Part shown: in pieces, positions 11,973-32,562 of the stretch
How the letters are laid out: each line of letters starts with the position of its first letter
How positions within the stretch are numbered: position 1 is the first letter of the stretch
Assembly: GCA_030537315.1 (NCBI GenBank)
Contig: JAUNNZ010000018.1
Span: 1-41,141, forward strand
Length of the DNA stretch: 41,141 nt
Direction: 5' to 3'
From: Bacteroidia bacterium
GTDB lineage: Bacteria; Bacteroidota; Bacteroidia; Bacteroidales; UBA932
Made by a program: the position numbers and the translations under genes
The notes under the pieces: generated by a model
Told to the model about the DNA's origin: nothing
Database searches by the model: none
The model's input: only the letters and a program-made list of their open reading frames with translations

Positions 11973-12905
11973 ATGGAAAATTATCTCAATGAAGATCCTC
12001 TCGTAAAACTCGAGAGAAAGGAAGAGGAAAAGAAGAACAAAAGCGGCAACGCTCTCTCAAAGGTTTTCCTCGTCGTGCTTGCTGTACTTGCAGTGGCTCT
12101 TGCGGCGGCACTCTTCTTGGTTCTGTCTTCAAAGAACAAACTTGTCAACGATCTTAACACGGAGAAGGTTGAACTCACAGAGCAGATTCAGGCTCTTCAG
12201 AACGACTACGAGAACCTGTCTTCCAATTACGATAGCATCAACGCACAGCTCGATTCCTCACGCGCAGAGATTGCACTGCTCGTGGATCGCGTGAAGAGCA
12301 CCGAAGCTACCGACCGTGCGAAGATCCGTCAGTATGAGAAGGAGCTCGGCACTCTCCGCAGCATCATGCGCAGCTATATCCAGCAGATCGACTCCCTCAA
12401 CACACTCAACCACCGCCTCGCCCAGGAGGCCGCCGAGGCACGCCAGGAGGCCGAGGAGCACAAGCAGATCAACCAGGTCCTCACCAAGGAGGTTGAGACA
12501 CTCACCAGCCGCGTTTCCGCCGGCGCCGTCCTCAAGGCGCGCGGAATCAAGATGGAGGCATACAACAATGCCGACAGGGTCACCGACCGCAGCGCACGCG
12601 CCGTCCGTTTCCTCGTGAGCCTCAGCCTTGTTGAAAACGAGCTCGCCGACCGTGGCCCGGTACGCGTCTATGTAAGGGTGTTCGATCCTGCCGGAAATCT
12701 CGTTTCCACAGGCCAGGACGCAGCATTCACCTGTGCAGGGGAAGAGCTGGTGGCGACCGCTTCCCGCGAAGTTGACTATCAGGGCGCCGAGGTTGACCTC
12801 GGAATCTACGTCAACAACATCCCTGCTCCAACCAAGGGTATCTACAACGTCATCGCCTATACCGAAAAGAGCCAGCTCGGCGTGGCTGACCTCTACCTCA
12901 GGTAA
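11973..12905 (+). CDS. Membrane-anchored coiled-coil protein
   Basis: A 310-residue protein with a short charged cytosolic N-terminus rich in Glu and Lys, one membrane segment (about residues 31-52), a long coiled coil (about 55-175, heptads with many Glu, Lys, Gln and Leu), and a C-terminal beta-rich domain (about 180-310, including RVYVRVFDPAGNLVS). Similar proteins are common and uncharacterised in Bacteroidota. The order suggests an inner-membrane protein with the coil and C-terminal domain in the periplasm. Its TAA overlaps the hemW ATG by one base, so the two are probably cotranscribed. No function can be assigned. Confidence 0.75.
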   Translation: MENYLNEDPLVKLERKEEEKKNKSGNALSKVFLVVLAVLAVALAAALFLVLSSKNKLVNDLNTEKVELTEQIQALQNDYENLSSNYDSINAQLDSSRAEIALLVDRVKSTEATDRAKIRQYEKELGTLRSIMRSYIQQIDSLNTLNHRLAQEAAEARQEAEEHKQINQVLTKEVETLTSRVSAGAVLKARGIKMEAYNNADRVTDRSARAVRFLVSLSLVENELADRGPVRVYVRVFDPAGNLVSTGQDAAFTCAGEELVATASREVDYQGAEVDLGIYVNNIPAPTKGIYNVIAYTEKSQLGVADLYLR

Positions 12906-19981: not shown

Positions 19982-20434
19982 GTGGACACACAAAGCTACA
20001 AAACTGTATCGCTTAACAAAGCAACAGTGGACAAGAAGTGGGTAGTCATTGATGCGACAGATCTCGCACTTGGTCGCCTCGCTTCTCGCGTTGCTCTTGT
20101 ACTTCGTGGCAAGAACAAGCCGGGCTTCACTCCTCACGTTGACTGTGGTGACAACGTCATCGTCGTCAATGCAGAGAAAGTGGCTCTCGGTGGCAAGAAG
20201 ATGACCGACCGCGTGTACACTCGCTACACCGGATATCCGGGTGGCCAGCGCTTCACAACTCCGAAGGAGATTCTCGCAAAGCAGCCTGCAGAGCTTGTCA
20301 GGAGAGCAGTCAAGGGTATGCTCCCTAAGACCCGTCTTGGTGATGACCTTCTCGGCAACCTGTTCGTATATGCAGGTCCTGAGCATCCACACCAGGCACA
20401 GAACCCTAAACAGATTAAGTTGGACGAAATTTAA
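19982..20434 (+). CDS. rplM: 50S ribosomal protein L13
   Basis: Early-assembly protein of the large subunit. The 150-residue product starts at GTG with MDTQSYKTVSLNKATVDKKW, the usual Bacteroidota L13 start, and contains VVIDATDLALGRLAS, GDNVIVVNAEKVALGGKK, YTRYTGYPGG, RAVKGMLPKTRLG and LFVYAGPEHPHQAQNP. It is the first gene of rplM-rpsI-(rpsB-tsf), with a consensus promoter and a 5' hairpin upstream. An AT-rich leader (AATTAAAGATC) precedes the GTG and no Shine-Dalgarno sequence is visible. Confidence 0.98.
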   Translation: MDTQSYKTVSLNKATVDKKWVVIDATDLALGRLASRVALVLRGKNKPGFTPHVDCGDNVIVVNAEKVALGGKKMTDRVYTRYTGYPGGQRFTTPKEILAKQPAELVRRAVKGMLPKTRLGDDLLGNLFVYAGPEHPHQAQNPKQIKLDEI

Positions 20435-20443
20435 ACAGAGCAA

Positions 20444-20833
20444 ATGGAACAGACACACGCCCTTGGAAGACGTAAAGCAGCTGTAGCTCGCGTTTATCTC
20501 ACCGCCGGCAATGGCAACATCACGATCAACGACCGTCCTCTCGAGACCTATTTCGCTCTCGAGTCACTCCGTTACATCGTGAATCAGCCGTTGGAAGTTG
20601 CTGGTGCAGCTGGCCAGTTTGACGTTAAGGTTACCGTCGTAGGCGGTGGCGTTAAGGGTCAGGCAGAGGCCATCCGCCTTGGCATCGCCCGCGCACTCAG
20701 TGAGGTTGATAAAGAAGCGTATCGTTCAGCACTTAAGGCAGCAGGCTTCCTCACCCGCGACGCACGTGAGGTTGAGCGCAAGAAGCCAGGCCAGCCGGGT
20801 GCACGCCGCCGCTTCCAGTTCAGTAAACGTTAG
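20444..20833 (+). CDS. rpsI: 30S ribosomal protein S9
   Basis: Small-subunit protein whose C-terminal tail reaches the P-site tRNA. The 129-residue product has [41 protein letters not shown] and the basic end [17 protein letters not shown] with terminal Lys-Arg. It lies 9 bases after rplM, the universal L13-S9 pair. Confidence 0.98.
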
Positions 20834-20994
20834 TTATCGATTGTTTACGGCACAGCTGTGGTTTCAAACCATCCTGGTGATGGCTGCCACGCTGCGGAAA
20901 AGGTTGGAGACCGGCCAGGCCGCTACTCCGCCTTGAAGAAAAGAGACCCCGCGAACGGGGACAGTTTACAAAAAACAAAAACAACAAGACAATT
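20834..20994 (+). promoter_or_regulatory. Structured leader upstream of rpsB (candidate S2 autoregulatory RNA)
   Basis: The 161 bases between rpsI and rpsB hold several perfect short stems: CCATC/GATGG (20869-20883, loop CTGGT), GCGGA/TCCGC (20894-20898 with 20927-20931) enclosing smaller pairings, and CCCCG/CGGGG around a CGAA loop (20947-20960). An unstructured A-rich stretch up to the ATG follows. No TAnnTTTG box is present, so it is probably an internal leader of the r-protein transcript. Ribosomal S2 is known to regulate its own mRNA in other bacteria; the link here is inference. Confidence 0.5.
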
Positions 20995-21801
20995 ATGTCA
21001 CGCACAAATTTCCAAGAATTGCTTGATGCAGGTGTTCATTTCGGTCACTTGGCAAGAAAGTGGAACCCTAAGATGGCTCCATACATCTTCGACCAGAAGA
21101 ACGGAATCCACGTTATCGATCTGCACAAGACTATCGGCAAGATAGATGAGGCAGCCGAGGAGATGAAGCAGCTCGCAAAGAGCGGCCGCAAGATCCTCTT
21201 CGTCGCTACCAAGAAGCAGGCAAAGGATATTGTAAAGGATAAAGCAACCGCAGTCAATATGCCTTCAATCACCGAGCGTTGGGCCGGTGGTATGCTTACA
21301 AACTTCCCAACAATCCGCAAGGCCATCAAGAAAATGGCCACCATCGACAAGATGAAAGAGGACGGTACCTTCGACAAGCTCGCAAAGCGTGAGCGTCTCC
21401 AGGTTGACCGTCAGAGAGCAAAGCTCGAGAAGAACCTTGGTTCTATCCGCGACATGAGCCGCCTTCCGTCAGCACTCTTCGTGATCGACGTACAGAAGGA
21501 AGCCAACGCAGTCAAGGAAGCCAATCGTCTTAATATCCCGGTATTCGCAATGGTTGATACTTGTTGCGATCCTACCCCTATTGATTATGTGATTCCGGCT
21601 AATGACGACGCTACCAAGTCAATCGAGTGCATCCTCAACATCCTTTGCGCAGCTATCAATGAAGGTCTCGAAGAGCGCAAGCTCGAGAAGGACAAGGAAG
21701 CTCCGGAGGAAGGTGCAGAGGAAGCAGCTCCGGCACGCAAGCTCCGCGCACGCAAGGGTGCGAAGCCAGTCGATGTAGAGGACGAGGAGAAGGCCGAATA
21801 A
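20995..21801 (+). CDS. rpsB: 30S ribosomal protein S2
   Basis: Small-subunit surface protein. The 268-residue product has LLDAGVHFGHLARKWNPKM, IDLHKTIGKIDEA, GRKILFVATKKQA, RWAGGMLTNFPTI, LPSALFVIDVQKE, NIPVFAMVDT and DPTPIDYVIPANDDA. An acidic, Glu/Ala-rich C-terminal tail follows, as often seen in Bacteroidota. tsf follows after 26 bases. Confidence 0.98.
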   Translation: MSRTNFQELLDAGVHFGHLARKWNPKMAPYIFDQKNGIHVIDLHKTIGKIDEAAEEMKQLAKSGRKILFVATKKQAKDIVKDKATAVNMPSITERWAGGMLTNFPTIRKAIKKMATIDKMKEDGTFDKLAKRERLQVDRQRAKLEKNLGSIRDMSRLPSALFVIDVQKEANAVKEANRLNIPVFAMVDTCCDPTPIDYVIPANDDATKSIECILNILCAAINEGLEERKLEKDKEAPEEGAEEAAPARKLRARKGAKPVDVEDEEKAE

Positions 21802-21827
21802 GTTCCATTTAATATAGAATAAGTATT

Positions 21828-22823
21828 ATGGCAATTTCAGCACAAGACGTAATGAAGCTTCGCAAGATGACTTCTGCCGGTATGATGGATTGCAAGAAGG
21901 CCCTCGAGGAAGCCAACGGTGACTTCGACAAGGCTATGGGCATTATCCGTGAGAAAGGCAAGCTCGTCGCTGCAAAGCGCGCAGACCGTGAGACCACCGA
22001 AGGTGCAGTCAAGGCCCGCATCGCAGGCAACAAGGGTATCCTCGTATGCCTCGGTTGCGAAACTGACTTCGTTTCACGCAACGCAGACTTCCAGAACCTC
22101 GCAGACGCTATCGCTGACGTGGCTATCGCAAACTGCCCGGCCGACATCGAAGGCCTCAAGGCTTGCAAGATGGCTGACGGCTACACCGTAGCTGAGGCAG
22201 TTGAGGCTCAGACTGGCAAGACCGGTGAGAAGCACGTTCTCGTCGGCTACGCTATCATCGAGGCTCCATTCATCGCCGAGTACATCCATAAGATCAATGG
22301 TAAGCTTGGTGCCATCGTCGGTTTCAACAAGCCGATCTCAGAGTCCCTCGCAAAGGGTGTCGTAATGCAGGTCGCTTCAATGAACCCTGTATCCATCGGC
22401 GCAGCTGACTGCCCTGCAGCAGTTCTCGAGGAAGAGAAGAACGTGGCTATCCAGAAGACCAAGGAAGAGCTCGTACAGAAGGGTATCGACGCCGCTCTCA
22501 AGAAGGCCGGCATCAACCCTGCACACGTTGACTCAGAGGCTCACATCGAGTCCAACACCGCCAAGGGTTGGCTCACTCCTGAGCAGGCTGAGCAGGCTCG
22601 CCAGATCATCAAGACCGTCGGTGAGGAGAAGCTCGCTTCCCTCAATATGCAGATGGTTGAGAACATCGCCAACGGCCGTGTTCAGAAGTTCCTCAAGGAG
22701 CAGACTCTCGAGGAGCAGGAGTACCAGATGTCAGACGACAAGATCTCTGTAAAGCAGGCTATGGCAGCTGAGGACAAGGACGCAAAGGTTCTTTGCTTCA
22801 AGCGCTTCACTCTCTGCGACTAA
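21828..22823 (+). CDS. tsf: Elongation factor Ts
   Basis: Exchanges GDP for GTP on EF-Tu. The 331-residue product begins with the UBA-like domain and the EF-Tu contact motif (KLRKMTSAGMMDCKKALEEA, then GDFDKAMGIIREKG). It continues with NKGILVCLGCETDFVSRN, the dimerisation-core repeats and the C-terminal GRVQKFLKEQTLEEQEY. This is the long form normal for Bacteroidales. It is the last gene of the ribosomal cluster and is followed by a strong terminator. Confidence 0.98.
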   Translation: MAISAQDVMKLRKMTSAGMMDCKKALEEANGDFDKAMGIIREKGKLVAAKRADRETTEGAVKARIAGNKGILVCLGCETDFVSRNADFQNLADAIADVAIANCPADIEGLKACKMADGYTVAEAVEAQTGKTGEKHVLVGYAIIEAPFIAEYIHKINGKLGAIVGFNKPISESLAKGVVMQVASMNPVSIGAADCPAAVLEEEKNVAIQKTKEELVQKGIDAALKKAGINPAHVDSEAHIESNTAKGWLTPEQAEQARQIIKTVGEEKLASLNMQMVENIANGRVQKFLKEQTLEEQEYQMSDDKISVKQAMAAEDKDAKVLCFKRFTLCD

Positions 22824-22843
22824 TCATTTGGTTCAGATACAAG

Positions 22844-22878
22844 ATGAGGATGACCGGTTCGGCCATCCTCATTTTTTT
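22844..22878 (+). terminator. Terminator after tsf
   Basis: ATGAGGATG pairs with CATCCTCAT (9 bases), with an inner CCG/CGG extension around GTT, followed by a run of seven T. It closes the rplM-tsf cluster. Confidence 0.92.
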
Positions 22879-22938
22879 ATATCCTAACGGCTCCGGGCTG
22901 CCAGCTCAGCTTCTCCGCCGTAAGAGAAAGCCAAACAA

Positions 22939-22975
22939 AATAGCTATTCTTTTGATAGTCAGAGGAATAGCTATT
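22939..22975 (+). repeat. Twin palindromes in the tsf-Rpn gap
   Basis: The self-complementary decamer AATAGCTATT occurs at 22939-22948 and again at 22966-22975, each followed by a similar TTTTG stretch, so the two form an imperfect direct repeat 27 bases apart. A further inverted repeat (AAACGGCC at 23007-23014, GGCCGTTT at 23033-23040) lies nearby without a T-tract. I see no gene in 22879-23075. Confidence 0.4.
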
Positions 22976-23075
22976 GCTTTTGTGATATAGCGTGCAATGA
23001 TTTTTGAAACGGCCGAGAAAACAACAATTCCTGGCCGTTTATCATATCGCTTCTCGCTGGGGCAGCCTGCCAGAA

Positions 23076-23996
23076 TCACAGTGCCTCGATCTGCTCCAGA
23101 CTCAAGCCCGTGGCCTTTGAAATAATCTCGGCAGATATACCCAACGCTTTGAGATTCCTTGCGGCGTTTACATTCCCTTCCTCTCTGCCTTCCTCTCTGC
23201 CTTGCGCCAGACCCTTCTCGAGCCCCTCAGCGGTGGCTTTCTCCATCGCGAAGTTCCATTGGTTGCGGATGTCTCTTTCGGTTGTCATATACCTGGCGTA
23301 ATCTTTCTTTTCGGTCTTGGAGAGGGACTCGACCTGGACAGTTTTGAAAAGTTCCCGCATCTCTTGCGTGCTGAACTCTGCAGGACGCTCGGTCAACCGT
23401 CCCATCTCCTTCAGACAAAAGTACCACCTTTCAAGGTCATTGTCAATACCTTGCAAGGATTTTTTGAAACGCCCCAGCTCTACGAAGACGATATTGATGG
23501 CTTCGGACAACTTCTCGCCTGTTGTCTTCTCTCTCAAAGAATAGAACGAGCGGTATTCGTCCAGCCAGTGAGGATTATCCTCGTGCTCCAAAGCAAAGTG
23601 AATGAAAGCAACCACGTACCGCGGTGTCAGATGATAAAGTCCGGCACCAGCCTCTACCTCTTCCAAAATCGGCAACGCAGCATAATAGACAGCTCTGTCC
23701 TTGAAGTCGTGCTGGTCACGAACCTGAACCTCGATAATCACTTCGTGACCGGTATCCAACTTACACCGAAGATCCATCCGCGAGTTTCTGTTCTCGCGGC
23801 TGAAGCCGGTGGTCTCAGGACTCAGATACTCCAGGTCCGAGACCCGGATGTCCGGGAGCATCCTGTTCAATAGTGTAATGAGCAGGCCTTTATTGGCCCT
23901 CCTGCCGAAAACCCTTTTGAAGATGATATCATCGGAGATATCCAAGAACGGACCGACAGTAACGCCACGATCCATAATAAAACTGTCATTGTTCAT
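23076..23996 (-). CDS. Rpn family recombination-promoting nuclease (PDDEXK)
   Basis: The Rpn family (called PD-(D/E)XK nuclease transposase in some databases) contains DNA endonucleases that promote RecA-independent recombination, and often occurs as several diverged copies per genome. The 306-residue product has MDRGVTVGPFLDISDDIIFKRVFG, the nuclease core SRMDLRCKLDTGHEVIIEVQV (Asp, then ExQ), AVYYAALP and the helical tail GLAQGREEGREEG ending ATGLSLEQIEAL. The ATG at 23996 is one choice; the next ATG, 21 bases further in (MDRG), is the start conserved in the remnant copy. It lies alone after the tsf terminator. An internally deleted relative sits at 29049-29147. Confidence 0.88.
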   Translation of the reverse strand: MNNDSFIMDRGVTVGPFLDISDDIIFKRVFGRRANKGLLITLLNRMLPDIRVSDLEYLSPETTGFSRENRNSRMDLRCKLDTGHEVIIEVQVRDQHDFKDRAVYYAALPILEEVEAGAGLYHLTPRYVVAFIHFALEHEDNPHWLDEYRSFYSLREKTTGEKLSEAINIVFVELGRFKKSLQGIDNDLERWYFCLKEMGRLTERPAEFSTQEMRELFKTVQVESLSKTEKKDYARYMTTERDIRNQWNFAMEKATAEGLEKGLAQGREEGREEGNVNAARNLKALGISAEIISKATGLSLEQIEAL

Positions 23997-24098
23997 AATA
24001 TGCAAAATTTTCAACGGTAGCCAATGTAGTGCATCACTGCACAAAGCCAATGAAATCTTAAAAAAGAAATCAAGAAATATATCTTTTCGAGGGTATAA

Positions 24099-24177
24099 AA
24101 ATAAATCTTATGACTATGCTCAGTTGCCAAATCAGTTTTTGTGGTCCCAAGCTTTTCTTGTGTAAGCCAGAGATTTT
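24099..24177 (+). repeat. 79-base direct repeat, left copy
   Basis: Identical base for base to 29232-29310 and in the same orientation. It begins AAATAAATC and ends GCCAGAGATTTT. It forms the non-coding outer end of the Rpn unit, 62 bases before the sigma-factor gene. Confidence 0.97.
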
Positions 24178-24224
24178 TTGTGTTTTTGAGTAGTCACTTT
24201 TAAGATTTTTCAGTCTATATAGTG

Positions 24225-24232
24225 TAAGTTTG
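24225..24232 (+). promoter_or_regulatory. Promoter -7 box of the ECF sigma operon
   Basis: TAAGTTTG fits TAnnTTTG and ends seven bases before the ATG at 24240, so a nearly leaderless mRNA is expected. No matching -33 TTG is seen, which would suit weak basal expression or a different sigma factor. Confidence 0.45.
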
Positions 24233-24239
24233 CTGATAG

Positions 24240-24755
24240 ATGACTGAAAATCGCGAAATAGAATCTTTGTTCAGACAGTATTATAGGCCGCTTTGCCTTT
24301 ATGCGTTCAGGTTCATAAAAGATACAGTGGCTGTCGAGGATGTCGTTCAAGAAGCTTTTGTAAAGTGTTTGGAGAAGAGAAACAGTCCCGATTGGCCGAA
24401 GTCTCCGAAACAATATCTGTTTCGGATAGTTCACAATAGTTGCGTGGATTTTGTTAAAGCAAACTCGCCACTGATTCGTACAGATGTTGCAGGGATAAGT
24501 GAATACTTTCCTGATGAGAATATCGTTGATAAGTCAGTCCTTATGTCACAACTTTGGTCTGCTATTGACAAGATGCCTGAGAAACGTCGGCAGGTTTTTT
24601 TGATGAGCAAGAGAGACAGTCTTTCCTATGCAAGAATAGGCGAATTGCTGGGAATTTCTGAAAACACGGTGCACAATCACCTAACAAAAGCAATGAAATC
24701 TCTCAAGGGGGTATTGGCAATTATGTTGCTATTTATATTCAATCAAATATGTTAA
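24240..24755 (+). CDS. ECF-type RNA polymerase sigma factor
   Basis: A 171-residue sigma-70 family protein with only regions 2 and 4. Region 2 spans about residues 10-75 (LFRQYYRPLCLYAFRF, VEDVVQEAFVKCLEK, PKQYLFRIVHNSCVDFVK). Region 4 spans about 105-160 (MPEKRRQVFLMSKRDSLSY, IGELLGISENTVHNHLTKAM). It ends in a short hydrophobic tail, as seen in other Bacteroidota ECF factors. It is the first gene of a five-gene unit and overlaps the anti-sigma gene by 7 bases. By analogy with FecI-type systems it should direct transcription of the downstream receptor operon when released. The surrounding DNA is AT-rich compared with the backbone. Confidence 0.92.
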   Translation: MTENREIESLFRQYYRPLCLYAFRFIKDTVAVEDVVQEAFVKCLEKRNSPDWPKSPKQYLFRIVHNSCVDFVKANSPLIRTDVAGISEYFPDENIVDKSVLMSQLWSAIDKMPEKRRQVFLMSKRDSLSYARIGELLGISENTVHNHLTKAMKSLKGVLAIMLLFIFNQIC

Positions 24756-25213
24756 CCATTAGTGAAGAGGATATCCGATTCCTCGCAGACAACTACCAGT
24801 CTGATTGTTTTGATGTCACGAAAGCAATCGGGAAATATTACGGAGGCAACCATTTCAAGTTCCATAGAAAAAAATGGTTGTTAACGGTTGTCTCTTCGGC
24901 CATAGGTGCTGCTGTTGCATTTGCGGGAGGATATTCCCTTGCTCTATCCATTCAGCGAGGAAAGGCTGAAAAGGAAGAAGCATCGGAACAGCAGAAACTA
25001 TTTGTGGAGACGACTGCAGCAGAAAAGCTGGAGTTTGAGGATATTCCGATTGTAGATGCGCTATGCGCATTGTCAGAGGCTTATGGTTGCAAGTTGTCAA
25101 CTGCGTCGACAGAAAAGAGGCTAACAGCAAGCTTTTCGCGTGAAGACGACCTTGAATATGTCGTGAAGCTGATAGAATCGGCACTTGATATCACTATTAT
25201 CGTGGAGAGATGA
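24749..25213 (+). CDS. Minimal FecR-like anti-sigma factor
   Basis: A 154-residue single-pass membrane protein: a cytosolic N-terminal helix region (about 1-40) that could bind the sigma factor, one membrane segment (about 43-68), and a short periplasmic part. Residues 93-153 (LEFEDIPIVDALCALSEAYG ending LIESALDITIIVER) have the strand-helix pattern of the DUF4974/STN-type domain found at the end of FecR proteins. The large FecR domain normally lying between the membrane segment and DUF4974 is missing; typical FecR proteins are about twice as long. Overlaps with the sigma gene (7 bases) and the receptor gene (4 bases) support a single regulatory module. The role is inferred from position and domain pattern. 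Confidence 0.75.
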   Translation: MLTISEEDIRFLADNYQSDCFDVTKAIGKYYGGNHFKFHRKKWLLTVVSSAIGAAVAFAGGYSLALSIQRGKAEKEEASEQQKLFVETTAAEKLEFEDIPIVDALCALSEAYGCKLSTASTEKRLTASFSREDDLEYVVKLIESALDITIIVER

Positions 25214-27447
25214 AGCGGCTGATCGTACTGTTTCTGATTTTTTCGTTATCAGTTTCTGCTATGGCCCAGATGTCTATTAAAGACAGAATGGCAATGGTGG
25301 CAGAGCAGTATGGTGTAAGTTTCGTGTATAATCCGTCTTTGCCGGTAAATGCCCCGGGTACTGTTGCTGATTTGAAGAACGGACGGTTGGAAGATGCTTT
25401 GACCATACTTTTCAAAGGTACAGGGATCTTATGGGAGCGCAGCGGGAAGTATGTCGTGTTGAAAAGAGAAAAGCACGAAGGATTGTCTGCTTCTCAGTCA
25501 GAACAGTTTGAAGTTGAAATACAGATGGACACCTTGATTCCTTCAATTATCTCATCCCGTAAAGATGTTGTGCGCACACTCGACAAGTTGAGTATTGGAA
25601 TTGAAGATGTCAGAGGTATTGTATCGCCTCTCGGGGAGGGTGACCCGATTAAATGGGTGCAGAAGCTCCCTGGCGTAGCCTCTGGCGCAGATGGTACATC
25701 TGCATTTTATGTACGTGGAGGTAATATGGGCAACACGCTCTTCTCTCTTGACGGGGTTCCAATCTATGGGTATTCTCATTTGTTAGGTCTCACGACAATC
25801 ATTCCTACAGCGGCTATGAAAAGTGCAACGCTTCAGAGAGGTGGCTTTGATGGTGCAGACGGGAACTTTACTTCCGCTCACTTATGTGTAGCATCAAAGG
25901 TCCCGGAGGATGGATTCAAGACAAGCATAGCATTGAATAATTTCCTTTTGGGTGCAGAAAGTGAAGGCAAGTCCGGGGGCTTTTCCTATGTAGTGTCAGC
26001 ACGCATTTCGCCTTTGGCTTTTGAATATCGGGCCATAAAAGGGTGCCTGCCCGACCTTTTTAGGCAGATGAATGATTTTGGTGCTGAAGTCGGAGATGTT
26101 TATGGTAAAATCCGTTGGCAGATGAGCAACAAAAGCTGGTTGGAAGTTTCAGGAATAGGTAGCCTTGATAATTACTCTTTTTCACTTGAGTCCGATAGTC
26201 AAGAATATATGCGTTGGTCAAATGCCATAGGCATTTTAAAGTATCACACGAATTCGGAGAATTCCTCTTTTGAGGCTACAGCATATGTTAACAAATACGG
26301 AAGTGAACAAGTTCAGGACAAGAAGTTCCGTGGGAGTAACAGCCATATGTCTCTCCGGTCAGATTTGTTTGAAGTTTCATTGTCTTTCGATAGAAATAGA
26401 AGGGCTGGCAGGTTCGTTTTTGACTATGGGGCGAAGATGCGATACGCACAGTTCAGTCCCGGTCAGGTGGCGGCCATAAACAATAGGTCCGACACATTCT
26501 TGGGTGACTTATATGCTCAGGCTAGATACGTTCTTCCAGAAAAATTGGAAATGAAGTTGAGTGCTCGTGCCAATTATTATAAGAATCTTTCAAATGACGG
26601 CGCAAACTTTGACCCCGAATGTTCTTTTTGCTCCAGATGGAAGATAAGTGATCATCTTTCCATAGAAGGATCATTCGACAGGTTGGTTCAGTATTACCAT
26701 ACCCTGGAAGGCCTGCCTGTAGGTTGGTCGTTGGATATGATTGTACCATCCGGAAAAAACGTGAAACCGGAATCAACATTACAGGGTAATCTAGGCCTGT
26801 CTTTCAAAGCAGAAGATCATAACGCAGCAATTGGCGGTTTCTACAAAAAGATGGTCAATCTCGTGTATTATCGCTACGCGCAAGAACTTTTCAGCGGTGG
26901 AATGGCCGATTGGGAAAATAATGTTAATCAAGGGAATGGCAAATCATTCGGCGTGGAGTTATTGTATGAATATCATCACGAAGACTGGTATGCCAATGCA
27001 TCATATACTATTTCAAAGACGAATCGATATGGCTTTTCCGAGATTAATGGCGGTGGTGAGTTCCACGCGAAGTTTGACAGGACCCATATATTGAATATCC
27101 TTGGAAAATGGAAAGGTTTCAGTCTTGCGTTCACGCTGCAAAGCGGTCAGTGGGAGGACGGTGCTGCTGCTACATATCCTATGCACGTGCTGGGTGGCGA
27201 TAAATGGACTGCCAGGTACTACTCTGGTGTGAACAATTACCATATGCCAATGCTCGTAAGGCTTGATCTTGGCTACAGAAATTCTTTTGAGACAGGCAAA
27301 TGCAAACATGAAATCAGTCTTGGTGTTTGCAACGTCACCAATCACTTCAATCCGTTTATGCTTTACTATGACAGCAAATCTGAATCTTGGAAAGAACTGT
27401 CCCTGCTTCCGATACTACCGAATTTCAGTTATCAAATCGTATTCTGA
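25210..27447 (+). CDS. TonB-dependent outer-membrane receptor with STN signalling domain
   Basis: A 745-residue outer-membrane protein. It has a signal peptide (1-20, ending AMAQ), an STN domain (about 21-86, DRMAMVAEQYGVSFVYN and LEDALTILFKGTG), a plug domain (about 115-225, with WVQKLPGVASGADGTSAFYVRGG and LDGVPIYG), and then a beta-barrel ending in aromatic IVF. The carboxypeptidase-regulatory-like domain often found between STN and plug in Bacteroidota receptors is absent; only about 28 residues join them. STN domains relay ligand binding to an anti-sigma factor, which fits the two genes upstream. The ligand is unknown. Two lipoprotein genes follow, the DUF4249 one being a common receptor partner. 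Confidence 0.9.
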   Translation: MKRLIVLFLIFSLSVSAMAQMSIKDRMAMVAEQYGVSFVYNPSLPVNAPGTVADLKNGRLEDALTILFKGTGILWERSGKYVVLKREKHEGLSASQSEQFEVEIQMDTLIPSIISSRKDVVRTLDKLSIGIEDVRGIVSPLGEGDPIKWVQKLPGVASGADGTSAFYVRGGNMGNTLFSLDGVPIYGYSHLLGLTTIIPTAAMKSATLQRGGFDGADGNFTSAHLCVASKVPEDGFKTSIALNNFLLGAESEGKSGGFSYVVSARISPLAFEYRAIKGCLPDLFRQMNDFGAEVGDVYGKIRWQMSNKSWLEVSGIGSLDNYSFSLESDSQEYMRWSNAIGILKYHTNSENSSFEATAYVNKYGSEQVQDKKFRGSNSHMSLRSDLFEVSLSFDRNRRAGRFVFDYGAKMRYAQFSPGQVAAINNRSDTFLGDLYAQARYVLPEKLEMKLSARANYYKNLSNDGANFDPECSFCSRWKISDHLSIEGSFDRLVQYYHTLEGLPVGWSLDMIVPSGKNVKPESTLQGNLGLSFKAEDHNAAIGGFYKKMVNLVYYRYAQELFSGGMADWENNVNQGNGKSFGVELLYEYHHEDWYANASYTISKTNRYGFSEINGGGEFHAKFDRTHILNILGKWKGFSLAFTLQSGQWEDGAAATYPMHVLGGDKWTARYYSGVNNYHMPMLVRLDLGYRNSFETGKCKHEISLGVCNVTNHFNPFMLYYDSKSESWKELSLLPILPNFSYQIVF

Positions 27448-27449
27448 TT

Positions 27450-27959
27450 ATGTCAACTAAAATTATACACGTTGTTTTTTCTCTATCATTTTTCCTTTTG
27501 TGTGGATGCGCCAAAGAGATTCCAGGGCCTTCCGGTGGCTTGAAAGATACATATTGGGAACCCATACATGCAAAGGGAGAATTGATGGGGAAGGATTTTG
27601 CCATCAAATGGGATAATGATGTTGATTCTGAGGGAGGGCTCTCGACAACATACTATGTTGACGGAGATGAGGTTGAATACAGTATGACGTTCTCCGGATA
27701 TCATTTTTATTATGAAAATGGCCGGAATGTTTTCTCAACATTTGCTATTTCTGCTCCAAATCTTGAAAGCAGTCCGAGGATGTATTATGTGTCTGATGGA
27801 GCACTCTACCTTGAGACTGTTTCTGGAAGCGCAGATTATTACTCTTCTTCTCAGAAGGAATTGGAACCAACGGGAAAGTTCGAAAAGTGTGCTCTCGAGG
27901 AGTTTGTTTCTAATAGAATGACATTTGCTGGTGTGACTTATCGGAAAGTTCAGAAATGA
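27450..27959 (+). CDS. Small hypothetical lipoprotein of the receptor operon
   Basis: A 169-residue protein with a lipoprotein signal (hydrophobic stretch ending FLLCGC, Cys20 as lipid site), then a strand-rich domain with a lipocalin-like rhythm (TYWEPIHAKGELMGKDFAIKW, VEYSMTFSGYHFYYENG). I do not recognise the family. It starts 2 bases after the receptor stop and overlaps the DUF4249 gene by 4 bases, so it is part of the same operon and probably a surface or periplasmic accessory of the receptor. The in-frame reading upstream of its ATG belongs to the receptor region. Confidence 0.75.
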   Translation: MSTKIIHVVFSLSFFLLCGCAKEIPGPSGGLKDTYWEPIHAKGELMGKDFAIKWDNDVDSEGGLSTTYYVDGDEVEYSMTFSGYHFYYENGRNVFSTFAISAPNLESSPRMYYVSDGALYLETVSGSADYYSSSQKELEPTGKFEKCALEEFVSNRMTFAGVTYRKVQK

Positions 27960-29011
27960 AGAGTAAACAAATACTTGCTTTTGTTTTGCCTGGGGCGGTG
28001 ATACTATCAATGTCTTCCTGCATAAGGGAAGTATCTCTTGATACAATGGAAAAGCGTCCTGTCGTTGTAGAGTGTGTCCTGGCCAATGAGCCTGTGCAGA
28101 CTCTCAGGCTATGTTTCGGGCAAGGCGCGTCCGAGAAGGAACTTACATATATTTATGATGCGGAAGCTGTTCTGACAGATTTGACAATAGGAAGGGATGT
28201 CGGGCGTTTTTCGCGAACGTCTGACGGAATATGGAATCTTTCTTATTCTGCAATTCCGGGACATAAATACAGGTTGGACGTTTCTGTCCCGGGGTATGAT
28301 CCTATATATGCCGAACAGACAATTCCGGAGATTGATGTGTCTGCAACATATTACGCAGACCAATTTGGCGATTCTACATATTATGAATATGATTCAAGTC
28401 CTTATATTGTGTACCATCTGAAATCGCTGCCTGAATATACCTGGATTTATGCTTTGCGTTATGATGACAGCTTGAGTGGCAGAACGATTGCCGAAGAGAT
28501 TTGCACTGATTATCCCTTTGTTGACAACTTTAATTTAACAGGAGGTACATACACGCCGGAGACGCATATTAAAACTATGATGGGAATTCCGATTGAAGTC
28601 GCACTGGCTCCGGATTTGATAGGGAGGAGCATTCATAACAGATATCTCAGAATTCCTCATCCTTCGGAACTTGATAAGATGTGGTTGATTGTATCTGGAA
28701 ATTTCAGCGGGGATTTTCCAATCAGATTTGTAAATGACAAGTTTGCGGGTCCACTTGTCGATGATGGCAAACTCCTTGAACTTGGTGAGAAGCAGGGTTG
28801 TGTGGTATTTTCCGGAGTCTCCGAAGACTATGACAGATACTTGAGGGAATCAATCCGTTACCAGCAGCTTCAGGAATCATCAGACCTGTCTTCTATTTAT
28901 GTGAGGGACAATATTTATACAAATATTCACGGTGGCATCGGCATTATGGGAGCCAAGGTTGATGAAAAGATGGTCTGGTGTAATGAGGAAGGTATATTGA
29001 ACGGAACATAA
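27956..29011 (+). CDS. DUF4249 family lipoprotein
   Basis: A 351-residue lipoprotein (signal ending SMSSC, Cys22) of the DUF4249 type: an N-terminal beta-sandwich-like region (KRPVVVECVLANEPVQTLRL, YDAEAVLTDL, YSAIPGHKYRLDVSVPGYDPIYAEQTIP), then a longer C-terminal part. DUF4249 proteins usually sit next to TonB-dependent receptors in Bacteroidota and are thought to act as surface partners, in the manner of SusD-like proteins. No enzymatic motif is seen. It is the last gene of the sigma/anti-sigma/receptor operon. An inverted repeat (CGGAACA 29002-29008, TGTTCCG 29032-29038) spans its stop codon but lacks a T-tract. Confidence 0.85.
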   Translation: MKSKQILAFVLPGAVILSMSSCIREVSLDTMEKRPVVVECVLANEPVQTLRLCFGQGASEKELTYIYDAEAVLTDLTIGRDVGRFSRTSDGIWNLSYSAIPGHKYRLDVSVPGYDPIYAEQTIPEIDVSATYYADQFGDSTYYEYDSSPYIVYHLKSLPEYTWIYALRYDDSLSGRTIAEEICTDYPFVDNFNLTGGTYTPETHIKTMMGIPIEVALAPDLIGRSIHNRYLRIPHPSELDKMWLIVSGNFSGDFPIRFVNDKFAGPLVDDGKLLELGEKQGCVVFSGVSEDYDRYLRESIRYQQLQESSDLSSIYVRDNIYTNIHGGIGIMGAKVDEKMVWCNEEGILNGT

Positions 29012-29048
29012 GGATCTAAGAGGATTTCTTCTGTTCCGCTGCGGAAAC

Positions 29049-29147
29049 TCACAGTGCCTCGATCTGCTCCAGACTCAGGCCCGTGGCCTTTGAGATGATA
29101 TCATCAGAAATATCCAGGAACGGGCCGACAGTAACACCCCGATCCAT
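29049..29147 (-). pseudogene. Internally deleted Rpn gene (in-frame remnant)
   Basis: Thirty-three codons join the first residues of the Rpn protein (MDRGVTVGPFLDISDDII) directly to its last ones (SKATGLSLEQIEAL, stop). About 800 bases present in copy 1 are missing and the reading frame is kept across the junction. The fusion lies where both parents read similarly (TTTGAAATAAT and TTGAAGATGAT in copy 1), suggesting a deletion at short homology. The nuclease core is entirely lost, so it cannot be an active nuclease; whether a 32-residue peptide is made is unknown. Confidence 0.85.
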
Positions 29148-29231
29148 AATCAAACAGCCTATGTAGTGCATCTCAAAACAAAGCCAATGAAATCTTAAAA
29201 AATCAAGAAATATATCTTCTTTGGGGGGCAC

Positions 29232-29310
29232 AAATAAATCTTATGACTATGCTCAGTTGCCAAATCAGTTTTTGTGGTCCCAAGCTTTTCTTGTGTAAGC
29301 CAGAGATTTT
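29232..29310 (+). repeat. 79-base direct repeat, right copy
   Basis: Identical to 24099-24177. Its end contains the TTG at 29291-29293 that serves as the -33 element of the flippase promoter; identity stops two bases before the -7 box. Confidence 0.97.
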
Positions 29311-29319
29311 ATATCTTTG
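29291..29319 (+). promoter_or_regulatory. Promoter of the flippase-cyclophilin operon
   Basis: -33 TTG (29291-29293), an 18-base spacer, -7 TATCTTTG (29312-29319), then five bases to the ATG at 29325. The -33 half lies inside the 79-base repeat and the -7 half outside it. Confidence 0.7.
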
Positions 29320-29324
29320 TACAT

Positions 29325-30782
29325 ATGAATCTCAAGTCTCTGGCAAAGGATACCGCTATATACGGTCTGAGCAGCATTGTGGGCAGGTTCTTGAACTACC
29401 TGCTGGTTCCGTTGTACACTTACAAGATTGCTGCGGAGAGCGGAGGCTATGGCATCGTGACCAACCTGTATGCGTATACAGCCCTGTTCCTCGCTCTCCT
29501 GACTTTCGGTATGGAGACGACACTTTTCCGCTTCTCCAATAAGGAAGGCGAGGATGCGAAGAAGGTCTACGGGACGATACTCCGTCTTGTGGGCTCGGTA
29601 GGTATCGCATTCCTTGCCGTTGTGTTGGCATTGCTGAAGCCGATTTCCGCTGCAATGGGATATGCTTCCCATCCGGAGTATGTAGGATGTATGGCCATAA
29701 TCGTGGCGTTCGATGCCTTCCAGGCGATTATGTTCAGCCGCTTGAGACTGGAGCGCAGGCCGCTCAAGTTTATGGCCCTGAAATTTGCGTTCATAATCCC
29801 GAACATACTGCTCAACCTCTTCATATTCCTCGTGATGCCCCTTCTTTTCGACAAGATGCCGGCTCTTCACGACCTATATGTGAACTATGACTACGGTGTT
29901 GGCCTGATCTTCTTCACCAACCTGATATGCACGTCCTGTGTTTTCCTGGGCTTTATACCGGAGCTCAAGGGACTTGGGAACGGTTATGACAGGGACCTCG
30001 CAAAACGTCTTCTGAAATACACCTGGCCTCTGCTTGTGCTGAGCCTTGTGGGCATCCTGAACCAGGTCGCCGACAAGATACTGTTCCCTTACCTTCTGCC
30101 GGGCGTTGAGGGGAAGGTCCAGCTGGGAATCTATGGTGCCTGCGTCAAGATAGCGATGATAATGAGCCTGCTCACACAGGCATTCAGATATGCCTATGAA
30201 CCTATAGTGTTCAACGGCAGCCGTGACAAGAACAGTCCCGAGACCCTTGCTGACGGAATGAAGTATTTCGTGATATTCACCCTGCTGGCATTCCTTGCAG
30301 TGATGTTCTATATGCCAATCCTCCGTCATTTCATCCAGCCTGACTATTGGGCCGGACTTGGCGTCATCCCTATCGTGATGATGGCTGAAATCTTCATGGG
30401 CATATACTTCAACCTGTCATTCTGGTACAAGCTCAGCGACCAGACATACTGGGGCGCGATAATGAGCGCCATAGGCGCGGCTGTGATGATTGCCGTCAAC
30501 GTGATCTTCGTGCCGAAAATCGGATATTGGGCCTGTGCCTGGGGCGGCTTCGCCGGTTACGGCACAGCGATGCTCCTGAGTTATTTCATCGGCCAGAAGA
30601 AATATCCTATCGGATATGATACCAGGACGGTCTTCCTGTTCTTCGGCCTGGCCGCCTCAATGTTCACGATCGACCTCTTCTGTCTGAAAGACCTCCCGGT
30701 ATGGCTTAGGCTTGCCGTCGACACGCTGCAGCTGCTGCTGTACGCATACCTCATCTGGAAAGAAATCAAACGCAAGAAATAA
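29325..30782 (+). CDS. Polysaccharide/lipid-linked oligosaccharide flippase (MATE/MOP fold)
   Basis: A 485-residue membrane protein with 12-14 hydrophobic segments and the Wzx-like N-terminus MNLKSLAKDTAIYGLSSIVGRFLNYLLVPLYT, characteristic of MOP-superfamily exporters that move lipid-linked sugars across the inner membrane. Charged residues such as RLRLERRPLKF lie in the loops. The substrate cannot be told from sequence, and no glycosyltransferases lie beside it. Upstream in-frame codons run into the 79-base repeat and the promoter, so the ATG five bases after the -7 box is preferred. The cyclophilin gene starts one base after its stop. Confidence 0.88.
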   Translation: MNLKSLAKDTAIYGLSSIVGRFLNYLLVPLYTYKIAAESGGYGIVTNLYAYTALFLALLTFGMETTLFRFSNKEGEDAKKVYGTILRLVGSVGIAFLAVVLALLKPISAAMGYASHPEYVGCMAIIVAFDAFQAIMFSRLRLERRPLKFMALKFAFIIPNILLNLFIFLVMPLLFDKMPALHDLYVNYDYGVGLIFFTNLICTSCVFLGFIPELKGLGNGYDRDLAKRLLKYTWPLLVLSLVGILNQVADKILFPYLLPGVEGKVQLGIYGACVKIAMIMSLLTQAFRYAYEPIVFNGSRDKNSPETLADGMKYFVIFTLLAFLAVMFYMPILRHFIQPDYWAGLGVIPIVMMAEIFMGIYFNLSFWYKLSDQTYWGAIMSAIGAAVMIAVNVIFVPKIGYWACAWGGFAGYGTAMLLSYFIGQKKYPIGYDTRTVFLFFGLAASMFTIDLFCLKDLPVWLRLAVDTLQLLLYAYLIWKEIKRKK

Positions 30783-30783
30783 A

Positions 30784-31467
30784 ATGAAAAAGATTCTCAC
30801 CCTCACGCTTTGCAGCGCAGCACTCGCAGCCATTGTGGCCGGCTGCGGCAACAACAATGAAAAGAAAGCCGCCGAGGCGGCCGCTCTCGCCCAGGCGGAA
30901 GCAGACTCTCTCGCAGCCGTCCTTGAACAGACAGCAATGGAGAAGGTCGCCCAGCTCCCTGAGGAGCCTGTCTTCGACATCATCACATCGATGGGCACCA
31001 TCACTGTCAAGCTCTATTCCCAGACCCCGCAGCACCGCGACAACTTCGCGAAACTCGCTTTCAGCGGATTCTATGACGGTCTTCTTTTCCATCGCGTGAT
31101 CAACGGATTCATGATCCAGGGAGGCGACCCTCTCACCAAGGATCCCGCCAACAAGGACAAGTTCGGCACAGGCGGTCCCGACTATACCGTGCCGGCCGAA
31201 TTCGTGCCTGAGTACCGTCATAAGAAGGGTGCTCTTGCCGCCGCGCGCCGCGGCGACGCCGCCAACCCTATGAAGGCGTCAAGCGGTTCACAGTTCTATC
31301 TGGTTCAGAACGAGCAGGCTTGCGCCGCTCTTGACGGAGACTATACCGTTTATGGCGAAACCATCAGCGGAATCGACGTCATCGATAAAATCGCAAGTGT
31401 GGAAACAGGCCCTAGAGACCTTCCTGTTCAGGATGTGAAGATTATTACTATAAAATTGGCTGAATAA
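30784..31467 (+). CDS. Cyclophilin-type peptidyl-prolyl isomerase lipoprotein
   Basis: Speeds cis-trans isomerisation at proline during folding of exported proteins. The 227-residue product has a lipoprotein signal (MKKILTLTLC, lipobox AIVAGC with Cys21), an Ala/Glu-rich linker, and a cyclophilin domain from about residue 60 (FDIITSMGTITVKLY, NFAKLAFSGFYDGLLFHRVI, GFMIQGGDP, ASSGSQFYLV, LDGDYTVYGETISGIDVI). The active-site Arg of the FHRV motif is present. It lies one base after the flippase gene, so it is probably cotranscribed, and is followed by a hairpin region and a terminator. Confidence 0.95.
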   Translation: MKKILTLTLCSAALAAIVAGCGNNNEKKAAEAAALAQAEADSLAAVLEQTAMEKVAQLPEEPVFDIITSMGTITVKLYSQTPQHRDNFAKLAFSGFYDGLLFHRVINGFMIQGGDPLTKDPANKDKFGTGGPDYTVPAEFVPEYRHKKGALAAARRGDAANPMKASSGSQFYLVQNEQACAALDGDYTVYGETISGIDVIDKIASVETGPRDLPVQDVKIITIKLAE

Positions 31468-31491
31468 TCAAAGTTTGGCACGCAACTTGAA

Positions 31492-31531
31492 AAAGTTTTA
31501 ACCGAATAGTTTTTTCATAGGTTAAAATTTT
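31492..31531 (+). other. Long AT-rich hairpin downstream of the cyclophilin gene
   Basis: AAAGTTTTAACC (31492-31503) pairs over 12 positions, one of them G-T, with GGTTAAAATTTT (31520-31531) around a 16-base loop. It lies between the cyclophilin stop and the terminator at 31554. It could be part of the 3' untranslated region or a separate small RNA; no TAnnTTTG promoter was found in the gap. Confidence 0.45.
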
Positions 31532-31553
31532 TTAAAGGTTAGAATTGATGAAG

Positions 31554-31580
31554 GCTCTCGATGCGAAATCGAGAGCTTTT
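31554..31580 (+). terminator. Terminator of the flippase-cyclophilin operon
   Basis: GCTCTCGAT pairs perfectly with ATCGAGAGC around a GCGAA loop, followed by TTTTCGTTTT. It ends just before the stop of the convergent LD-carboxypeptidase gene. Confidence 0.9.
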
Positions 31581-31584
31581 CGTT

Positions 31585-32562
31585 TTATTGTGCCAGAATC
31601 GCGTTGCGGCCGGAGACCGTCAGGGTGGCGGGCGCCCCCTCGACCAAAGGCAGGTTCAAATCACCGTGTCCGGCCTGGAAGCCGAAGGCCACCGGGATAC
31701 CGAGGCCTGAGGTGTATGCAGAAAGCATCTCTTCTACGGATCCATAGGCGAATTCGGTTCCGCAGTCGGTGAATTCGCCGAATACGATTCCCTTGATATG
31801 CTTCATCTTCCCCTGGAGAGAAAGCATGTTGAACAGACGGTCGATGGCATGCATGCTCTCCTCTACTTCTTCGATGAAGAGGATGCAGTCACGGTCCGCG
31901 ATGCAGTCATAGTCCGAGCCCAGCAGCGTCATCATCGTGATCATATTGCCTCCCACGAGGACGCCTGACGCTTCGCCTTCTACATTATAGGGCGAAGCCT
32001 GGATTTCGTAGCACGGCCTCTTTCCCATCAGGACCTCCAGCATCTCCCGGTTGCCCTCTTCCTCCAGCCCTCCGGCAGCCAGACTGCTGGCCATATTGCC
32101 GTGGATGCTCATCACACCCGCCTTGACACAGGCAAGGTGAAGTGCAGTGACGTCGCTGTATCCGACTATCCATTTCGGATGCCTGCGGAGCTCGCGCAGG
32201 TCAAGTTCCTGCAGCATCTGGATTGCGCCATATCCGCCGCGTGCGCAGATGACCGCCTTGACGCTGTCATCCTTCAGTGCGCGCAGAAGGCCGTCCGCCC
32301 TTTGCGCGGGCGTGCCGGCATAATAGGACCTGTTGACGGTGTCCGATACGGGTGTCTGCAAATGGACATTCTCCATTACTACCGCTTCGAGTCCGAATTC
32401 CCGGAGGCAGTCGCAGGCCTTGCTGACGGTCGAGTCGGGCATCCAGTAGGACGTGGCGACGATGGCGACCCTGTCGCCTTTCTGAAGAGGCTGTGGCCTG
32501 ACGGCGCGCCCGCAGGAAGTCGCGGCGGCAACAGCCAGGATGAGGATGAGTTTATTTCGCAT
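31585..32562 (-). CDS. LD-carboxypeptidase (S66) lipoprotein
   Basis: Cuts the bond between L- and D-residues of muropeptide tetrapeptides in cell-wall recycling. The 325-residue product begins MRNKLILILAVAAATSC, a lipoprotein signal, so it is probably periplasmic and lipid-anchored. The S66 fold is seen in GDRVAIVATS near the start, ARGGYGA, the nucleophile motif GYSDVTAL (Ser), LFIEEV (Glu) and GFQAGH (His), giving the Ser-Glu-His triad. Its start overlaps the end of the symporter gene by 11 bases, so the two form an operon. Most characterised LdcA enzymes are cytosolic; the lipoprotein signal is a departure from them. Confidence 0.9.
   Translation of the reverse strand: MRNKLILILAVAAATSCGRAVRPQPLQKGDRVAIVATSYWMPDSTVSKACDCLREFGLEAVVMENVHLQTPVSDTVNRSYYAGTPAQRADGLLRALKDDSVKAVICARGGYGAIQMLQELDLRELRRHPKWIVGYSDVTALHLACVKAGVMSIHGNMASSLAAGGLEEEGNREMLEVLMGKRPCYEIQASPYNVEGEASGVLVGGNMITMMTLLGSDYDCIADRDCILFIEEVEESMHAIDRLFNMLSLQGKMKHIKGIVFGEFTDCGTEFAYGSVEEMLSAYTSGLGIPVAFGFQAGHGDLNLPLVEGAPATLTVSGRNAILAQ

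What the first reader, a model, noticed from the sequence alone, without database searches (positions are those of the whole stretch)
23076..29310. AT-rich ECF sigma/TonB receptor island bracketed by two like-oriented Rpn nuclease units
The operon at 24240-29011 lies between a full Rpn unit and a deleted copy of the same unit, in direct orientation, inserted between the ribosomal cluster terminator and a flippase gene. Sampled lines inside it are about 40-43% GC against about 60% in a neighbouring backbone line. Direct repeats around foreign DNA suggest either single-crossover integration of a circle carrying one Rpn unit, or two Rpn insertions that now make the segment excisable by homologous recombination. 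Rpn proteins are known to promote RecA-independent recombination, so the nuclease may help move its own neighbourhood. This is the best candidate here for an undescribed mobile arrangement.
Basis: partly seen in the sequence, partly recalled or inferred. Interest (0 to 1): 0.7.

Follow-up and report, generated by a model that had tools for sequence, protein, structure and literature searches.

The report
Foreign operon between two nuclease copies
In a gut bacterium's genome, a foreign-looking nutrient-receptor operon sits between an intact and a broken copy of an Rpn nuclease gene; a sister species lacks all of it here but has a similar arrangement elsewhere, so such nuclease genes can mark spots where genomes gain DNA, though nothing here shows that the nuclease itself moves the DNA.

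Summary
An intact Rpn gene (23076-24050, minus) and an internally deleted copy (29049-29310, same orientation) bracket an AT-rich ECF-sigma/anti-sigma/TonB-receptor/DUF4249 operon, 24240-29011. The copies share an exact 79-bp outer repeat; elsewhere 163 of 189 aligned positions match. The closest relative found, G231, has neither Rpn nor operon here, but carries another direct-oriented Rpn pair around about 5 kb of cargo beside ychF, where the window's genome is empty. So presence/absence is shown. Mobilisation by Rpn is not: no integrase or terminal inverted repeats, no Rpn unit left at either empty site, and host-like GC in Rpn but not in the cargo. In 80 further Rpn loci the second Rpn genes found (11 loci) lay within 2.7 kb. 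Flanking direct repeats were far commoner than at control genes: 15 of 75 against 2 of 195. Likeliest: an Rpn duplication at a permissive intergenic site that took up foreign DNA by repeat-mediated recombination. Published work covers most of this; the flanking repeats are the new part.

The parts
21828..22823 (+). tsf, left backbone gene (rpsB precedes it at 20995-21801)
   Evidence: ORF; G231 orthologue 99.4% aa
22846..22878 (+). hairpin plus T run read as the tsf terminator
   Evidence: read by eye from the sequence
23076..24050 (-). intact Rpn family nuclease gene, 324 aa; candidate catalytic D93 and E107-x-Q109 assigned by eye
   Evidence: ORF; PF12784 E 2.6e-46; TIGR01784
24051..24098 (.). 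Rpn unit upstream region; similarity to the G231 units runs on to 24117
24099..24177 (.). left copy of exact 79-bp direct repeat
24240..24755 (+). ECF sigma factor
   Evidence: PF08281, PF04542; TIGR02937
24749..25213 (+). anti-sigma (FecR_C) protein
   Evidence: PF16344 E 4.9e-6
25210..27447 (+). STN/TonB-dependent receptor, 745 aa
   Evidence: PF00593, PF07715, and PF07660 just under its cut-off
27450..27959 (+). small putative lipoprotein
   Evidence: ORF; no Pfam match
27956..29011 (+). DUF4249 protein
   Evidence: PF14054 E 4e-8
29049..29310 (-). internally deleted Rpn unit: 3' end joined in frame to 5' end and upstream region; about 0.8 kb of the gene missing
29232..29310 (.). right copy of exact 79-bp direct repeat
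29325..30782 (+). flippase gene, right backbone gene
   Evidence: ORF; PF01943; G231 orthologue 95% aa

Best explanation
A composite accessory segment built in steps at a permissive intergenic site (after the tsf terminator, before the flippase). A lineage-resident Rpn unit was duplicated in direct orientation together with about 60 bp of its outer flank, which fits the published view that rpn arrays form by tandem direct duplication. Foreign AT-rich DNA carrying a regulated TonB-uptake operon then entered between the two copies, most simply by recombination at the repeat. One Rpn copy lost its nuclease domain by a short-repeat deletion, and the middle of the other was exchanged with a paralogue like the one at G000:C6. 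Shown: the architecture, the 79-bp repeat, the foreign composition of the cargo, the empty sister site and the reciprocal island in the sister. Inferred: the order of steps, the recombination route, and any role of Rpn cleavage in stimulating it. The operon itself would be ordinary sigma/anti-sigma-controlled outer-membrane uptake.
For: Direct-oriented copies with an exact 79-bp outer end and 43 of 44 positions alike at the 3' end, but 61 of 72 and 26 of 35 in inner blocks. At 15% divergence an exact run of 79 has chance about 3e-6. About 60 bp of it lie outside the unit shared with the G231 copies, so outer flank was duplicated too. The inner part of the intact copy is closer to the G000:C6 remnant (89.5% over 200 bp; alignment) than to its neighbour. 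Sister G231 is empty at the site; 0 of 29 fetched flippase loci of other genomes has an Rpn hit within their 1.5-kb flanks. Cargo is foreign in GC3, Rpn is not. Short Rpn arrays occur in 11 of 80 surveyed loci, 13 of 15 extra segments in the same orientation. Other deleted Rpn remnants lie at G000:C6. Zhong et al. (PMC10327210; passages and one whole section read) infer tandem direct duplication for arrays and hitch-hiking or recombination for spread.
Against: Simple duplication predicts even divergence along the unit, so a second event (exchange with a paralogue) must be assumed. No genome with the intermediate (two units without cargo, or one unit) was found. G231's interval is occupied by unrelated sequence, so exact insertion ends cannot be read. 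Most Rpn loci surveyed are single (69 of 80), so duplication is not the rule. The window is a MAG contig: with a 79-bp exact repeat, the same assembly path could arise from a chromosome with one unit plus a separate 5,133-bp circle (inference).
Confidence: 0.45

Rival explanations
1. Rpn units of this lineage are insertion-type mobile units that make long, variable-length duplications of gene ends and terminators, and pairs of them carry cargo like a composite transposon.
For: Flanking direct repeats at 15 of 75 Rpn loci against 0 of 600 permuted pairs and 3 of 196 control ORFs, one of which is itself an Rpn; 9 of 64 after dropping loci with a second Rpn segment. I read the repeat as the neighbour's terminator in L181 and L156; it is a ychF 3' end in G231. 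Copies at different sites of one genome share a discrete unit: G228 -356 to +61, G231 -130 to +31. Reciprocal islands in the sister species.
Against: No terminal inverted repeats at the unit ends. Several repeats are dispersed intergenic elements or tandem Rpn remains (L141, L155, L198, L151; my reading). No case gave an occupied site plus an empty site with exactly one repeat copy; two searches for such sites failed. Zhong et al. saw no target duplications and variable ends. Cargo and Rpn differ in composition here.
Confidence: 0.2
2. Single-crossover integration of a circle (deleted Rpn unit, 79-bp end, cargo) into a resident Rpn unit; the 5,133-bp segment could still be excised.
For: Period of exactly 5,133 bp between the 79-bp repeats; both partners carry the unit end; Rpn relatives occur on plasmids (189 records, all below 60% identity).
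Against: Requires the circle to carry the same 60-bp outer flank; no replication or recombinase gene was recognised between the units; no close match to the operon in 400 genus genomes, longest about 760 bp at 68% (only the two best candidates per genome scored).
Confidence: 0.15
3. Independent insertions into a hot spot: two unrelated Rpn arrivals and a separate operon arrival, with no functional link.
For: The interval is variable: G231 holds different sequence with an inverted repeat; flippase inverted in G180 and G128, another gene between in G303. 69 of 80 Rpn loci have no second Rpn segment.
Against: Does not explain the identical 79-bp end or a second Rpn-cargo-Rpn in the sister, where the two Rpn copies found lie 6.3 kb apart, start to start, in a 2.7-Mb genome.
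Confidence: 0.2

Closest known systems
rpn gene arrays and rpn genes in accessory regions (Zhong et al. 2023, PMC10327210; passages and one section read)
   Same: Rpn copies in direct orientation, presence/absence between close genomes, association with acquired DNA
   Different: Here about 5 kb of cargo lies between the copies, one copy is deleted inside, and an exact 79-bp repeat is present; Zhong et al. report no target duplications
E. coli RpnA and paralogues (Kingston et al. 2017, PMC5350276; passages read)
   Same: Same broad nuclease class; RpnA overexpression raises RecA-independent recombination, with little sequence specificity in vitro
   Different: Pfam PF04754 there, PF12784 here; activity of this protein untested
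Composite transposons (general knowledge)
   Same: Two like-oriented copies around cargo
   Different: No inverted terminal repeats, no recognised transposase of known mechanism, no single-copy target site in the sister
IS1634-type elements with long variable direct repeats (recalled; only a search listing seen)
   Same: Long variable-length direct repeats
   Different: An IS4-group transposase with inverted repeats, by recall
FecI/FecR-like ECF sigma, anti-sigma, TonB receptor operons of Bacteroidales
   Same: Gene order and domains; own-genome paralogue of the operon at G000:C50, receptor 49% aa
   Different: Low GC and location between Rpn copies

Membership tests
Rpn (PDDEXK_2/TIGR01784) | profile match | tested here: met
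   PF12784 158.6 bits against 27.4; TIGR01784 122.2 against 52.1
Rpn (PDDEXK_2/TIGR01784) | nuclease activity and recombination phenotype | not testable with these tools
   D93, E107-x-Q109 by eye beside RpnA D63, E82, Q84
Insertion sequence | terminal inverted repeats | tested here: not met
   five inverted pairs in 21500-31500, one of them the hairpin at 22932-22982, none at the unit ends
Insertion sequence | target-site duplication | tested here: inconclusive
   79-bp repeat and survey enrichment, but no clean empty site with one copy
Insertion sequence | constant unit ends between copies | tested here: inconclusive
   shared ends within G228 and within G231, different ends between genomes
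Composite transposon | two element copies around cargo that move together | tested here: inconclusive
   arrangement present twice; joint movement not seen; compositions differ
Integrative element with integrase | integrase, relaxase or recombinase gene | tested here: not met
   none recognised among the six proteins of 23076-29011 scanned with Pfam
rpn tandem array | direct orientation and duplicated flanking DNA | tested here: met
rpn tandem array | even similarity along the copies | tested here: not met
   79 of 79 at the outer end, 43 of 44 at the 3' end, 61 of 72, 33 of 38 and 26 of 35 between
ECF sigma/anti-sigma/TonB operon | the three domains in one direction | tested here: met

The most novel reading that the evidence does not exclude
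In this Bacteroidales genus Rpn nuclease units behave as insertion-type elements with long, variable-length duplications of neighbouring gene ends or terminators (about 31-79 bp in the cleaner cases), and pairs of units serve as recombination arms through which accessory operons enter and leave. Rpn would then be both a defence toxin and a maker of genomic islands.
Probability: 0.18. Interest if true: 0.7.

Novelty: new variant of a known kind. Interest (0 to 1): 0.45.

Why it matters
Rpn genes are widespread, are commonly annotated as putative transposases, and have been described as toxin-antitoxin anti-phage genes (PMC10327210, passages). That work finds no target duplications around them. 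If the excess of flanking direct repeats seen here holds in complete genomes, it gives a concrete handle on how Rpn genes spread and whether their nuclease promotes local DNA uptake. The two reciprocal sites in two sister species make that testable.

Tried and rejected
Excision between the Rpn copies as the source of the empty sites: rejected, no unit is left behind. Rpn and cargo as one recently acquired package: disfavoured by GC3. Rpn-cargo-Rpn as a general genus feature: not supported. By tblastn no second segment in 80 loci lay more than 2,703 bp away. A DNA-level check that does find the window's and G231's second copies gave matches over 3 kb away in 4 of 80 loci (L164, L165, L182, L189), all 24-149 bp; I did not assign these, and the unit was searched with 200 bp of flank, so they may be flank repeats. 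Clean empty sites for L181 and L137: the 41 genomes searched each time gave no syntenic match across the unit. G315 against G279 did give an empty site, but for a 13.2-kb island (GC 43%) with Rpn as its first gene, no second Rpn by DNA or by tblastn inside it (one weak match, E 9e-4, lies beyond its right end) and no end repeat seen by blastn, so it shows island insertion right after a stop codon, not Rpn transposition. A 25-base probe from the window repeat had no exact match in viral contigs. Rfam found no family at 20000-32000 at gathering thresholds. PADLOC gave only weak matches. No structure was predicted. An exploratory look at 28 first loci and 18 wider ones showed flanking repeats in several (L009/L137, L010, L014, L123, L125) and gave the idea for the survey; those loci are not counted in it, but two survey places (L170, L242) had also been among them as L022 and L024, both without a repeat in the survey.
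Full report
What is there. The window holds rpsB, tsf, an Rpn gene on the minus strand (23076-24050), an operon on the plus strand (24240-29011), a short Rpn piece on the minus strand (29049-29310) and a flippase gene. The Rpn gene matches PF12784 and TIGR01784. The operon encodes an ECF sigma factor, an anti-sigma factor with FecR_C, a TonB-dependent receptor, a small lipoprotein without a Pfam match, and a DUF4249 protein. The short Rpn piece keeps the last part of the gene joined in frame to its first part and upstream region; about 0.8 kb is missing.

The repeat. The two units match at 82-90% in four blocks. From 24099 to 24177 and 29232 to 29310 they are identical over 79 bp at an offset of 5,133. 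Outside it, 163 of 189 ungapped positions agree: 43 of 44 at the 3' end, 61 of 72 in the 5' coding part, 33 of 38 and 26 of 35 upstream. So both outer ends are nearly alike and the inner part is not. The unit shared with G231 ends near 24117, so about 60 bp of the repeat are outer flank. The inner part of the intact copy is closer to a remnant at G000:C6 (89.5% over 200 bp; alignment). A recent duplication followed by exchange with such a paralogue would give this pattern; that is inference.

Composition. The cargo is 43% GC against 55% outside; GC3 is 0.36-0.45 in its five genes, 0.60-0.73 in the five backbone genes measured, and 0.61 in Rpn. The own-genome paralogous operon (G000:C50, receptor 49% aa) has GC3 0.54-0.62. 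So the cargo looks foreign and Rpn does not. In the 80 survey loci Rpn genes are on average only slightly poorer in GC than their surroundings (0.496 against 0.517; lower in 54 of 80).

Empty site. In G231, the closest relative found among 300 sampled genus genomes for the flippase (95% aa; Tsf 99.4%), tsf and flippase lie about 497 bp apart with no Rpn and no operon; the interval holds other sequence. Of 29 flippase loci fetched from other genomes with up to 1.5 kb of flank (L040-L068), 7 reach tsf: G231, G118, G243 and G015 with tsf and flippase about 66-497 bp apart, G180 and G128 with the flippase inverted, G303 with another gene between. None of the 29 has an Rpn hit. A DNA search of 400 genus genomes found no close match to the cargo: longest about 760 bp at 68%, short pieces up to 84% (two best candidates per genome scored).

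A second arrangement. G231 has two Rpn units in the same orientation, 6.3 kb apart start to start, around FISUMP-like genes and a HipA gene with its small neighbour, between a SurA-like gene and ychF (SurA and YchF names by eye). The window's genome is contiguous there, with 39 bp between the matching flanks. The second G231 unit lies between two copies of the ychF 3' end (68 bp, 94%); 59 bp of the displaced copy are identical to the window genome's own ychF end. Pieces of the same cargo, a ychF end and Rpn fragments also lie rearranged at G000:C6. Neither empty site retains an Rpn unit, so neither arose by recombination between the two units.

Survey. PF12784 at E up to 1e-20 occurs in 179 of 300 genus genomes and in 0 of 14 control genomes. 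From the capped list, best scores first, I fetched the first 80 places starting at base 6,000 or beyond, leaving out the window, G231 and five places already held; 15 of the 80 stretches were cut short by contig ends. Second Rpn segments occur in 11 of 80, 13 of 15 segments in the same orientation and all 9 to 2,703 bp away. A DNA-level check finds further matches over 3 kb away in 4 of 80, all 24-149 bp and unassigned. Thus short arrays occur and bracketed cargo is rare. Comparing 600 bp upstream with 30 bp before to 300 bp after the stop, 15 of 75 usable loci score 15 or more, against 0 of 600 permuted pairs. Of 196 control ORFs from the first 60 loci, 3 score so; one of these is the second Rpn of L189. 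Without loci that have a second Rpn segment it is 9 of 64, against 0 of 81 isolated non-Rpn controls, Fisher P 0.0005 (I took the one Rpn out of the 82 with 1 positive). An earlier, coarser test gave 9 of 54 against 1 of 45. By my reading the repeats are mixed: neighbour terminators (L181, L156), dispersed intergenic repeats (L141, L155), tandem Rpn remains (L198, L151). So the excess is real in this sample, but its cause is not one thing.

Copies within a genome. G228 copies L144 and L147 share a unit from about -355 to +61; a third, L146, shares the left end and stops at its contig end. The two G231 copies share -130 to +31. Ends differ between genomes. G228 and G162 share one Rpn with 5.6 kb of downstream flank, and G279 and G315 another, so units are also inherited in place. 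G315 has a second Rpn with no match at the corresponding place in G279, but as the first gene of a 13.2-kb AT-rich island that begins right after a stop codon.

Literature. Kingston et al. 2017 (passages) report RecA-independent recombination on Rpn overexpression and weak non-specific cleavage by RpnA. Zhong et al. 2023 (passages and one full section) see presence/absence of rpn genes, no target duplications, variable ends and arrays by tandem duplication, and hold transposition highly unlikely. Three full-text searches on Rpn listed no title or abstract on Rpn flanking repeats in Bacteroidales; I saw 19, 15 of 1,189, and 5 listed papers, and the library is partial.

Judgement. The finding is a real composite accessory locus. 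Most of it fits duplication plus hitch-hiking, with repeat-mediated uptake of foreign DNA as the likeliest route. A mobile role of Rpn is possible and testable, and is not shown. The main technical doubt is that this is a MAG contig with an exact 79-bp repeat, so integrated and circular forms could assemble alike.

Noticed in passing
window 22927-22989: A hairpin of about 50-63 bp left of the Rpn unit recurs at 87-96% in 26 other genus genomes (a 27th, longer match is 74%; my count from the capped table, 400 genomes searched); RNA fold z -3.7; no Rfam match at gathering thresholds.
   Followed up: partly
L093 about 12150-12345 (G231 tsf-flippase interval): An inverted-repeat element of roughly 150 bp, read by eye, lies in the sister's interval.
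   Followed up: no
L151 7449-7754 and other loci: Short Rpn genes without the nuclease domain lie next to full Rpn genes; they resemble the RpnS antitoxin part as a separate gene.
   Followed up: partly
L131 1641-1834 and 2800-2993; L095 12090-12340: Repeated FISUMP/Lcl-type C-terminal cassettes, recalling variable regions of diversity-generating retroelements (recalled); no reverse transcriptase was looked for.
   Followed up: no
L250 124-5586: G315 island genes: a 793-aa protein with a ribosomal L7/L12 C-terminal domain and an MvdD/RimK-like ATP-grasp protein.
   Followed up: no
L103 9134-9466: A broken second 3' end of a TonB receptor (60% aa to the window's) beside the paralogous operon at G000:C50.
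   Followed up: no
L038 1891-2040: A ychF 3' end fused to an Rpn fragment in the window's genome, away from the ychF locus at G000:C22.
   Followed up: partly
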